From NCBI GenBank assembly GCA_949710005.1, contig OX453281.1, positions 17,988,001 to 18,052,000 on the forward strand: DNA of 64,000 nucleotides, given 5' to 3'. The notes under the pieces are model-generated. The model was given only the letters and a program-made list of their open reading frames with translations, searched no databases and had not been told where the DNA came from. A program made the translations under genes and the position numbers. Below, piece after piece: positions 3,601 through 6,600 of the stretch; position 1 is the stretch's first letter; every line of letters begins with the position of its first letter. This DNA comes from Ricordea florida (lineage: Eukaryota; Cnidaria; Anthozoa; Corallimorpharia; Ricordeidae).

Positions 3601-6600
3601 ACACGAGTGGAAGTTTGGGCGAACGAGAAATGCTGGGGGAACACGAGCCTCAGGCGAGTGTTTCCACGGCTTTTTCGAGTTCTCCCAAACTTTCTCGAGT
3701 GTTTCTATAGCTCGATAGAAACATGGAGAACATGTTTTCTATTTCTTTTAGAAAACACCGCAACGAAAAAAAGGAAAACTAGCGTTCTATCACAAAATGC
3801 CGCGCTCTGATTGGCTACGCTACCCACTATCTATTCTGTGATAGATAGTGAGTAGCGTAATGGCGGCCGCTTCTTCACGTTTTCGAAGTGTCCGTGAAGA
3901 AAATTTAGACAGTTTACTGGTCGAGACTGTTCCAGAAATGACAAAGTTTTGAACGACTGGTAGATTTATACTAAAACAATTAGATTATTCGCTCTCGATT
4001 TCTATGCGTGATAGTTGACTCGGGCTGCGCCCTCGTCAAGTATCACGCGATAGAAATCTCGAGCTCATAATGTAATTGTTTAATAGAAACAGGGATTCTA
4101 ACCAATCAGCGCGCGTATTTTATTTGGACTGTTTTCTAACTTACTTATAGTTGTTACCTAATGTCACAGCACTTGATGTTATTAACCAATATGCTGTTGT
4201 GATGGCAATCAATACGCTTCACCGGTAAGATCCACTGATGTATGCAATGATTGTTTTTTCCTTGCAGCGAATGAGATCCATAGTGTGGTTGTTCTGTGTA
4301 TACTGTATCATATCAGTATGGACGACAGATTCAAGTCCATGTTCACATTCACAGACTGCATACCGACTGTAAGTTCTGCTCAATAGCTCGCCATTCTTCG
4401 CACGCAGTAGGCAATGTCCCATCAAACATGAAACACTTGGGGGAAAGTTGAAAGGAAAGCGTAACATAACAATTGGACAAAAGCTGGGATGGTGACAACT
4501 TATCAAATAGAAAGTAATTCACTTCCTACCACAAATCCAACAACTCAGATGCTATCGCGAATCCTGCAAGCTGATTGGCTAGCGTTCTCACTATCAATTC
4601 TGTTGGTAGATACCTAGTATTTTGCTGTCAATTTTAGTTCAAGTTTTAATCTTCTGTTGTTCAAATAGAAAGTAATTCACTTCCTACCACAAATCCAACA
4701 ACTCAGAGGCTATAGCGAATCCTGCAAGCTGATTGGCTAGCGTTCTCACTATCAATTCTGTTGGTAGATACCTAGTATTTTGCTGTCAATTTTCGTTCAA
4801 GTTTTTGTCTTCTGTTGTTCATTTGTCACCGTTTGCGCTTCACTCCAGAAGGAAATTTTGCCTTCGGTCGCTCATGACTGCAACTTGGACAAATGTTGTT
4901 TGACCTCGCTGCTTTGCAGAGGACGGCATGTAGAATTTCATTGTGTTGTTGAATTGCTTCACACGTTGTTTAGTGCCACCTCATTTGTCCTCATCGTCGT
5001 TGCGGTTGTATTTTATTTGCACTTGAGTTTCCTAATTGGGCGATAAAAGCAAACATTTGAATATGAAGAGATTGGGAGCAGTGGGGTGGGGTTTGGTGAA
5101 GCTAATAAAGTACAGGCCGCTAAGTTGACCAATCAAAGCGCGCGTAGCAGCTGAGAGATTTATAATAAACCAACATATGGTTGCTTCAGATGATGAAGAT
5201 GATGCTGGAGTGCCCAGGTGACCGCGTCGATCTTGAGCTGGTAGCACTGGGTATCAACTTGGCTGCCAATAAGAGAAACGCTCACCTGATATGCGAGGGA
5301 CCTGGGCTGAGGCTTCTGATGAGAAGAGCATTCAAGTTTAGTGATCCACTGTTGATGAAGATGATAAGAAACATCTCTCAGCACCATGGACCTACAAAAA
5401 CGCAGTTTGTGGTGAGTCATTTAACAATTTTACCACAATTGCTACTAATCTCGCAATCTGATTGGTTAATTTGCCGTTGTCGATAAGAGTCTACACAAGG
5501 CTGCTCGCGTCAATGTGTCACGCCAAGAGAGGGGATTATCCAAATTTTGATTGAGCTGTTGAACGGTAGGTTATGTTGCCGCCTCACGCTTGATATAATT
5601 AAGAACAGAAAATGGCTGGTGTATCTGTTTACTTTGAATAGCACGGTGATTAATTGTGCTACGATCAGAAACGCTCATTTCGAGGAATAAACCAATCCGA
5701 TTGCGAGAAAGTTATAGACTATGCTTGCTCTTTCTTTGTGTCACGATCTTGGGGACGCTCTGACGAAAAAAAAAACATTTTATTTGACGTTTTTTAATGT
5801 GGTAAAAAAACAAATCGAATGTGGCTTAACGTTGTCTGTACTCCTATCGACAACGAGTACGCTTTATCACAGTGGTCAAAATGCTGTGGACTCAAGAGGC
5901 GCAGCTGAGTGAGTCCACAACATTTTGACCACTGTGATGACGCATATCGTTGTCGATAAGAGTACAGACAACGCTAAGCTACATTCAATTTGTTTTTTAC
6001 CACAATATCAACGTCAAAGGAAATGTTTTTTTCAGAGCTTGACCAAGATAGATTCATTCTTTTTTCTGACGGAATGATTAGTATTGACACCTGTAAAATA
6101 ATCATGTTTACGTGTGTTTAGATAGGATAGTTCTCCATAGTAAAAATTCCGGATCAATGTCAGTATCTGCGCCACTGTGCACCTACCCCTCCCCTAACCC
6201 AACATTAACGCTTACTTTGTAACTTATTATAACTTGTTGGGTTAGGGGAGGGGTAGGTGCACAGGAGCCCCGACACTAACATTGATTCGAAATTCCTGTA
6301 AAAACATTGTAACTTATATAATAAAGCATTTCACCCTTCTTGTAAATATTTTTGTCATTTGGGTAAAATGAAATGAAATTGCTTATGGATCCACAGGAAT
6401 ATATTGGTGACCTTGCCAACGCGGTGCGAACATACCCGGATGAAGAGTTCGTATTGGAATCCCTAGGTATTCTGGGAAATCTTACCATTAGTGACGTCAA
6501 CTTTCAGCAGCTGCTGACCGACTACGACATGCTCACATACATCAAGGACAAACTACAACCTGGTAAGACAAGGAACTGAGCTGTATTCACAGTCACCTTA

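What the first reader, a model, noticed from the sequence alone, without database searches (positions are those of the whole stretch)
5450..5708. A hairpin-family element carries an exact fragment of the KIFAP3 gene it sits in
5526-5664 is identical to 6913-7051 (139 of 139 bases): 40 bp of exon, the splice donor and 99 bp of intron. It sits between imperfect inverted ends (CTCGCAATC..GATTGG and inverse) and next to the family word TTGTCGATAAGAGT. This looks like Pack-type gene capture (as described for plant Pack-MULEs) from 1.4 kb away and into the same gene. Full identity means it is recent or kept by gene conversion. The copied donor could create a cryptic exon end in KIFAP3 pre-mRNA. Host-fragment capture by MITE-sized elements in cnidarians is something I do not recall being described.
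Basis: partly seen in the sequence, partly recalled or inferred. Interest (0 to 1): 0.78.

Follow-up and report, generated by a model that had tools for sequence, protein, structure and literature searches.

The report
Local gene-fragment copy inside intronic repeat
A 139-base piece of a kinesin-associated gene has been copied, letter for letter, into a small repeat element in a nearby intron of the same gene, most likely as a patch during DNA-break repair, a kind of event already described in other animals.

Summary
5526-5664 equals 6913-7051 at 139 of 139 bases, same orientation, 1387 bp apart. It is the only dispersed direct pair at 95% or more among 83 repeat pairs in the window. The source is the end of a KIFAP3 exon with its donor and intron. 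The copy lies between 23-bp inverted repeats that shuffles do not give (0 of 3000).

The reading needs correction. Such cases are known in animals as single-copy "Pack-TIRs" (Tan et al. 2021, PMC8277862), which that study attributes mostly to transposition-independent gap filling: a break inside an old element is patched from a nearby template. This case fits in distance, size, internal position and an insert less diverged than the element's ends.

Weak points: no target duplication at six border pairs, no microhomology beyond chance directly at either junction, no genome to count copies. 5449-5708 is probably not the whole element: similarity to a second copy continues past 5708.

Verdict: new member of a known kind. 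Three searches aimed at cnidarians showed no such case; the host taxon was not tested.

The parts
5412..6396 (+). KIFAP3 intron that holds the element
   Evidence: donor GT 5412, acceptor AG 6395-6396; flanking exons align to KIFAP3
5428..5439 (+). word TTTTACCACAAT left of the inverted end, repeated in the hairpin arm at 5995
5449..5525 (+). left part of the host repeat, with inverted end 5449-5471 and word 5475-5502
5526..5664 (+). 139-bp copy: 40 bp exon (5526-5565), donor GT 5566-5567, 99 bp intron
5665..5708 (+). right part of the host repeat, with inverted end 5686-5708; begins TCAGAAA
5709..5743 (+). stretch past the supposed end that resembles the second copy, 24 of 35
5746..6049 (.). 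304-nt palindromic hairpin with the shared word in both arms
6827..6952 (+). KIFAP3 exon whose last 40 bp were copied
6913..7051 (+). source of the copy
7053..7063 (+). CCCCCTCCCCC run one base past the end of the copied stretch
7064..7070 (+). TCAGAAA in the source, same seven bases with which the element resumes at 5665
42965..43184 (-). second copy of the unit with spacer and flank word, without KIFAP3 sequence
42665..42864 (.). inverted-arm hairpin beside the second copy (arms 92%)

Best explanation
This is a gene-fragment capture made in place by gap filling. An older small inverted-repeat element in a KIFAP3 intron, beside a very strong palindromic hairpin, suffered a break or fork stall near its middle. 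Repair synthesis switched template to the same gene 1.4 kb downstream, copied 139 bases across an exon-intron boundary, and rejoined the other side of the element. Shown: exact copy, direction gene to element, distance, inverted ends, hairpin. Inferred: the break, the template switch, a stall at the G-rich template strand of 7053-7063, and that the element was already in the intron.
For: Exact 139-bp copy in the same orientation 1387 bp away. The source is a conserved, in-frame KAP exon. The inverted ends differ at 2 of 23 positions, the insert at 0 of 139 (Fisher P 0.019). The insert is internal (77 bp of element left, 44 right). The second unit in the window lacks the fragment. A 304-nt hairpin (z -21.9) starts 81 bases past the right junction. 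The copy stops one base before a CCCCCTCCCCC run, one of two such runs on either strand in 64 kb, and TCAGAAA recurs just beyond it (7 nt within 15 nt: P 0.037 shuffles, 0.020 random pairs). Tan et al. report for 281 animal Pack-TIRs: 56.9% within 15 kb of the parent and mostly under 5 kb, median insert 224 bp, microhomology at one breakpoint or more in 67.6%, breakpoints skewed inward.
Against: No microhomology beyond chance directly at either junction: within 3 nt, 1 nt at the 3' side (P 0.66 shuffles) and 3 nt at the 5' side (P 0.13); within 15 nt at the 5' side 4 nt (P 0.58). The end mismatches may predate insertion, since ends of a mobile element need not be identical. Ends and superfamily of the element are unknown, no target duplication was seen, and no relative with an unfilled element could be examined.
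Confidence: 0.75

Rival explanations
1. Mobile Pack capture: the element took up the KIFAP3 fragment earlier, was filled when it lay elsewhere, and transposed as a unit into this intron.
For: Inverted ends and a related unit elsewhere in the window.
Against: Landing 1.4 kb from its own source in the same orientation would be a coincidence; one copy in 64 kb; no target duplication. In Tan et al. multicopy cases were distal from their parents in frogs and alligators.
Confidence: 0.08
2. Templated or tandem-type duplication unrelated to the repeat: a local copy landed in the intron, and the inverted ends around it play no part.
For: Other local duplications exist nearby, such as the tandem pair 4503-4821. 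Ends and family are weakly defined (nhmmer E 0.26-0.63). No direct junction microhomology.
Against: The inverted ends are not chance (0 of 3000), and the unit without insert aligns to a second unit better than shuffles. The copy is not tandem: its flanks differ from those of the source.
Confidence: 0.12
3. Assembly artefact: the fragment was placed in the intron by misassembly.
For: Perfect identity; no reads available here.
Against: Both flanks belong to one coherent repeat unit with matching inverted ends; a misjoin would not be expected to place a fragment between them (inference).
Confidence: 0.05

Closest known systems
Single-copy Pack-TIRs of animals (Tan et al. 2021, Nat Commun 12:4280, PMC8277862)
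   Same: Non-TE sequence within an inverted-repeat element, parent identifiable and close in cis, insert of a few hundred bases, exon sequence sometimes included, internal breakpoint.
   Different: Superfamily and target duplication not established here; no outgroup test; microhomology only with an offset. Cnidarian names that I looked for are absent from the main text of that paper.
Plant Pack-MULEs / Pack-TYPE elements (PMC8903248 seen as listing; PMC13317346 passages and section 7)
   Same: Host-gene fragments between terminal inverted repeats.
   Different: One third of rice Pack-MULEs are multicopy and their inserts often come from other chromosomes (as told in PMC8277862). Neither is seen here, as far as 64 kb can show. 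No target duplication found.
Hybrid formation between neighbouring Pack-CACTA elements (section 7 of PMC13317346)
   Same: Chromosomal DNA ends up between element ends.
   Different: That model captures DNA lying between two neighbouring elements. Here the left edge of the source lies inside a coding exon, and no repeat end was seen at 6913 or 7051.

Membership tests
Single-copy Pack-TIR (gap-filling type) | host sequence enclosed by two parts of one inverted-repeat element | tested here: met
   the unit with the insert left out aligns to a second unit better than shuffles, though its interior alone and right part alone do not
Single-copy Pack-TIR (gap-filling type) | parental copy identified | tested here: met
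   6913-7051, 139 of 139
Single-copy Pack-TIR (gap-filling type) | parent close by in cis | tested here: met
   1387 bp; Tan et al. 160 of 281 under 15 kb
Single-copy Pack-TIR (gap-filling type) | microhomology at a breakpoint | tested here: inconclusive
   none beyond chance directly at the junctions; 7-nt TCAGAAA offset by 12 nt at the 3' side, P 0.02-0.04
Single-copy Pack-TIR (gap-filling type) | flanks belong to a recognised TIR transposon family | tested here: inconclusive
   two similar units in the window; nhmmer from single units E 0.26 and 0.63; no target duplication; no superfamily assigned
Single-copy Pack-TIR (gap-filling type) | single copy in the genome | not testable with these tools
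   no genome held; the window has one copy beside the source
Single-copy Pack-TIR (gap-filling type) | unfilled element at the orthologous site of a relative | not testable with these tools
   no related eukaryote genome on hand
Pack-MULE | target duplication of about 9-11 bp (length partly recalled; 9-10 bp for fly FB4) | tested here: inconclusive
   not found: longest shared word 3 nt at 5449/5708 (P 0.85), 5 nt at 5428/6049 (P 0.14); but the true ends are uncertain
Pack-MULE | mobilised by a Mutator transposase | not testable with these tools
   no genome held

The most novel reading that the evidence does not exclude
The host repeat is one module of a composite hairpin-bearing element (inverted-repeat unit, spacer, long hairpin) whose words are homogenised within each locus, and the hairpin makes these loci hotspots of short-range template switching, so that local words and neighbouring gene fragments are repeatedly pasted into the unit. 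The KIFAP3 patch would then be one freshly caught event of a continuing process in this lineage.
Probability: 0.15. Interest if true: 0.6.

Novelty: new member of a known kind. Interest (0 to 1): 0.33.

Why it matters
It is a clean, recent case in which the source still lies unchanged 1.4 kb away, so the repair origin of gene-fragment capture can be read from the junctions. If the host is a cnidarian it would extend the animal Pack-TIR record to that group. The copied splice donor gives a concrete, testable route to a poison exon, but nothing here shows that it is used.

Tried and rejected
Mobile Pack-MULE reading: not the first choice because of the 1.4-kb distance, the single copy in the window and the lack of a target duplication at six tested border pairs. 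Hybrid formation between neighbouring elements: rejected because no repeat ends were seen at the borders of the source. Direct microhomology at the junctions: not beyond chance.

Similarity of the two units is mixed. Whole unit against whole unit: 61 against a shuffle mean of 30.6, 0 of 2000; 113.9 against a mean of 70.0 and a maximum of 99.5 in 1000. Interior alone: 185 of 2000 shuffles as good; right part alone: 331 of 2000. nhmmer from single units: E 0.63 and 0.26; nhmmer from the two-row alignment printed no row. The in-register spacer test (24 of 35; 0 of 5000 shuffles, 1 of 5000 random genomic pairs) was framed after seeing the alignment; the free local test gives 40 of 5000.

Searches that gave nothing: three word patterns in viral contigs and two in genome contigs, 0 matches each; these collections are viral and prokaryotic, so this says little about a eukaryote repeat. 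Folding 5449-5708 with its insert as DNA gives z -1.9, 10 of 200 shuffles as good. Pfam on ten of the 39 open frames of 100 aa or more matched 2 of 10.

Cryptic exon: the copied donor matches 7 of 9 positions of a recalled consensus, as do the original and two other KIFAP3 donors; 154 of 3650 GTs in the window score 7 or more. The seven AGs between 5440 and 5565 have 45-60% pyrimidine in the 20 bases before them, against 85, 65 and 50% for three real acceptors of the gene, so an acceptor is neither shown nor excluded. An exon 5528-5565 would hit a TGA (read by eye, no tool run).

Literature: eight searches. PMC8277862: abstract, parts 1-3 of 10 of its main section, and found passages. PMC13317346: section 7 and found passages. 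PMC6446971 and PMC9842752: found passages. PMC8903248: search listing with start of abstract, and a term search that found none of six terms. All other papers: search listings only.

Full report
OBSERVATION. The 139-bp identity is exact: 5526-5664 equals 6913-7051, same strand, 1387 bp apart. In a self-comparison of the 64 kb (83 pairs at E up to 1e-3) it is the only dispersed direct pair at 95% or more; the four others of that class are tandem or inverted pairs. The 95% upper limit on divergence for 0 of 139 is 2.1%. The source is real coding sequence: four exon pieces of the window, spliced, match the Pfam KAP family at 1.8e-98 over profile positions 416-619 and Kinesin-associated protein 3 in PDB 9w9h_C at 7.4e-86. 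A further open frame at 10421-11008 matches the end of the KAP profile, 7.1e-16. The copied stretch holds the last 40 bp of exon 6827-6952, its donor and 99 bp of intron.

THE HOST REPEAT. The copy lies between 23-nt inverted repeats, 5449-5471 and 5686-5708, 91% complementary; 0 of 3000 shuffles reach that score. A pattern of the ends finds 9 matches with up to 3 mismatches in the window against 1.13 expected, two of them the ends of a second unit at 43001-43163, minus strand. The insert has no match there: its only match at E below 0.2 beside itself is 6913-7051. With the insert left out, the two units align better than shuffles (0 of 2000; 113.9 against a maximum of 99.5 in 1000). The interior alone (185 of 2000 shuffles as good) and the right part alone (331 of 2000) do not, and nhmmer from single units gives E 0.63 and 0.26. 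The family relation therefore rests on the ends, the ATAAGAG word and the overall order.

THE BORDERS ARE PROBABLY WIDER THAN CLAIMED. Similarity to the second unit runs on past 5708: 24 of 35 in register, against 0 of 5000 shuffles and 1 of 5000 random genomic pairs. This register was chosen after seeing the alignment; the free local test gives 40 of 5000. Both units sit beside a long hairpin in the same relative order and orientation: 5746-6049 (-109.7 kcal/mol as single-stranded DNA, z -21.9, 0 of 100 shuffles) and 42665-42864 (arms 92%; not folded). The shared words agree best within a locus: unit 1 with hairpin 1 at 23 and 21 of 29, unit 2 with hairpin 2 at 26 and 27, unit 1 with unit 2 at 15, unit 1 with hairpin 2 at 13, unit 2 with hairpin 1 at 18-19, hairpin with hairpin at 16-17. 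TTTTACCACAAT occurs only at 5428 and 5995; TTTTACAATAAC, either strand, only at 42861 and 43173. Against strict locality, unit 2 and hairpin 1 share a 15-mer. I read this as a composite hairpin-bearing repeat with subfamily-specific words (inference from two loci). No target duplication stands out at six border pairs, so true ends and transposase class stay unknown.

MECHANISM. The simplest account is a patch made in place. The insert is internal (77 bp of element to its left, 44 to its right). The source is 1.4 kb away in the same orientation. The insert is unchanged while the ends differ at 2 of 23 (Fisher P 0.019), although ends may differ for other reasons. The copied stretch ends one base before a CCCCCTCCCCC run, one of two such runs on either strand in 64 kb (8 with the looser rule of four or more C on each side). 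A polymerase copying left to right would meet that run as G-rich template (inference). Beyond it the source has TCAGAAA, the same seven bases with which the element resumes; such a match within 15 nt has P 0.037 against shuffles and 0.020 against random genomic pairs. Directly at the junctions there is no microhomology beyond chance. The neighbouring hairpin is a plausible source of breaks or fork stalling (inference and the model in PMC8277862).

WHAT IS KNOWN. Tan et al. 2021 (PMC8277862; abstract, three of ten parts and passages seen) report 370 Pack-TIRs in 100 animal genomes, 281 after removing redundancy. They argue that single-copy ones come mostly from transposition-independent gap filling: 160 of 281 (56.9%) within 15 kb of the parent and mostly under 5 kb, median insert 224 bp, microhomology at one breakpoint or more in 190 (67.6%), breakpoints skewed inward, 13.4% exonic. 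This case fits distance, size, position and exon content; microhomology and element family are inconclusive. In that paper multicopy cases lay far from their parents in frogs and alligators. The term Pack-TIR occurs in that one paper only in the library searched. Searches aimed at cnidarians listed 4, 1 and 2 papers. For two of those I saw passages: one on Mutator evolution (PMC6446971) and one on sea anemone venom, which mentions a roughly 15-kb insertion suggestive of a Pack-MULE (PMC9842752). So Pack-type elements have been suspected in a cnidarian, but I saw no case like this one in what was shown.

CONSEQUENCE FOR THE GENE. The copied donor matches the consensus as well as the original does (7 of 9; consensus recalled). 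No AG upstream has a strong pyrimidine tract, though one real acceptor of the gene scores no better (50%). An exon 5528-5565 would carry a stop codon (read by eye). Nothing here shows that it is used; the likeliest outcome is a silent intronic patch.

LIMITS. All statements on the repeat family rest on two units in one 64-kb window.

Noticed in passing
5428-6049 and 42665-43184: Two loci share one layout (inverted-repeat unit, spacer, long hairpin) with words that agree better within a locus than between loci. This suggests a composite element with subfamily-specific words, or local exchange between its modules.
   Followed up: partly
45550-45637 and 46026-46113: An 88-bp inverted pair at 98.9% with 388 bp between the arms, the best-preserved inverted pair in the window; possibly a young inverted-repeat element.
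   Followed up: no
4503-4821: Two tandem 158-bp copies at 97% upstream of the exon that ends at 5411: another recent-looking local duplication near the element.
   Followed up: no
6145-6294: Inverted repeat with 60-nt arms, 87% complementary, 30 nt apart, in the same intron, so this intron holds several inverted-repeat structures.
   Followed up: no
53489-53794: Open frame matching the ion transport domain PF00520, 2.1e-10, probably part of a channel gene.
   Followed up: no
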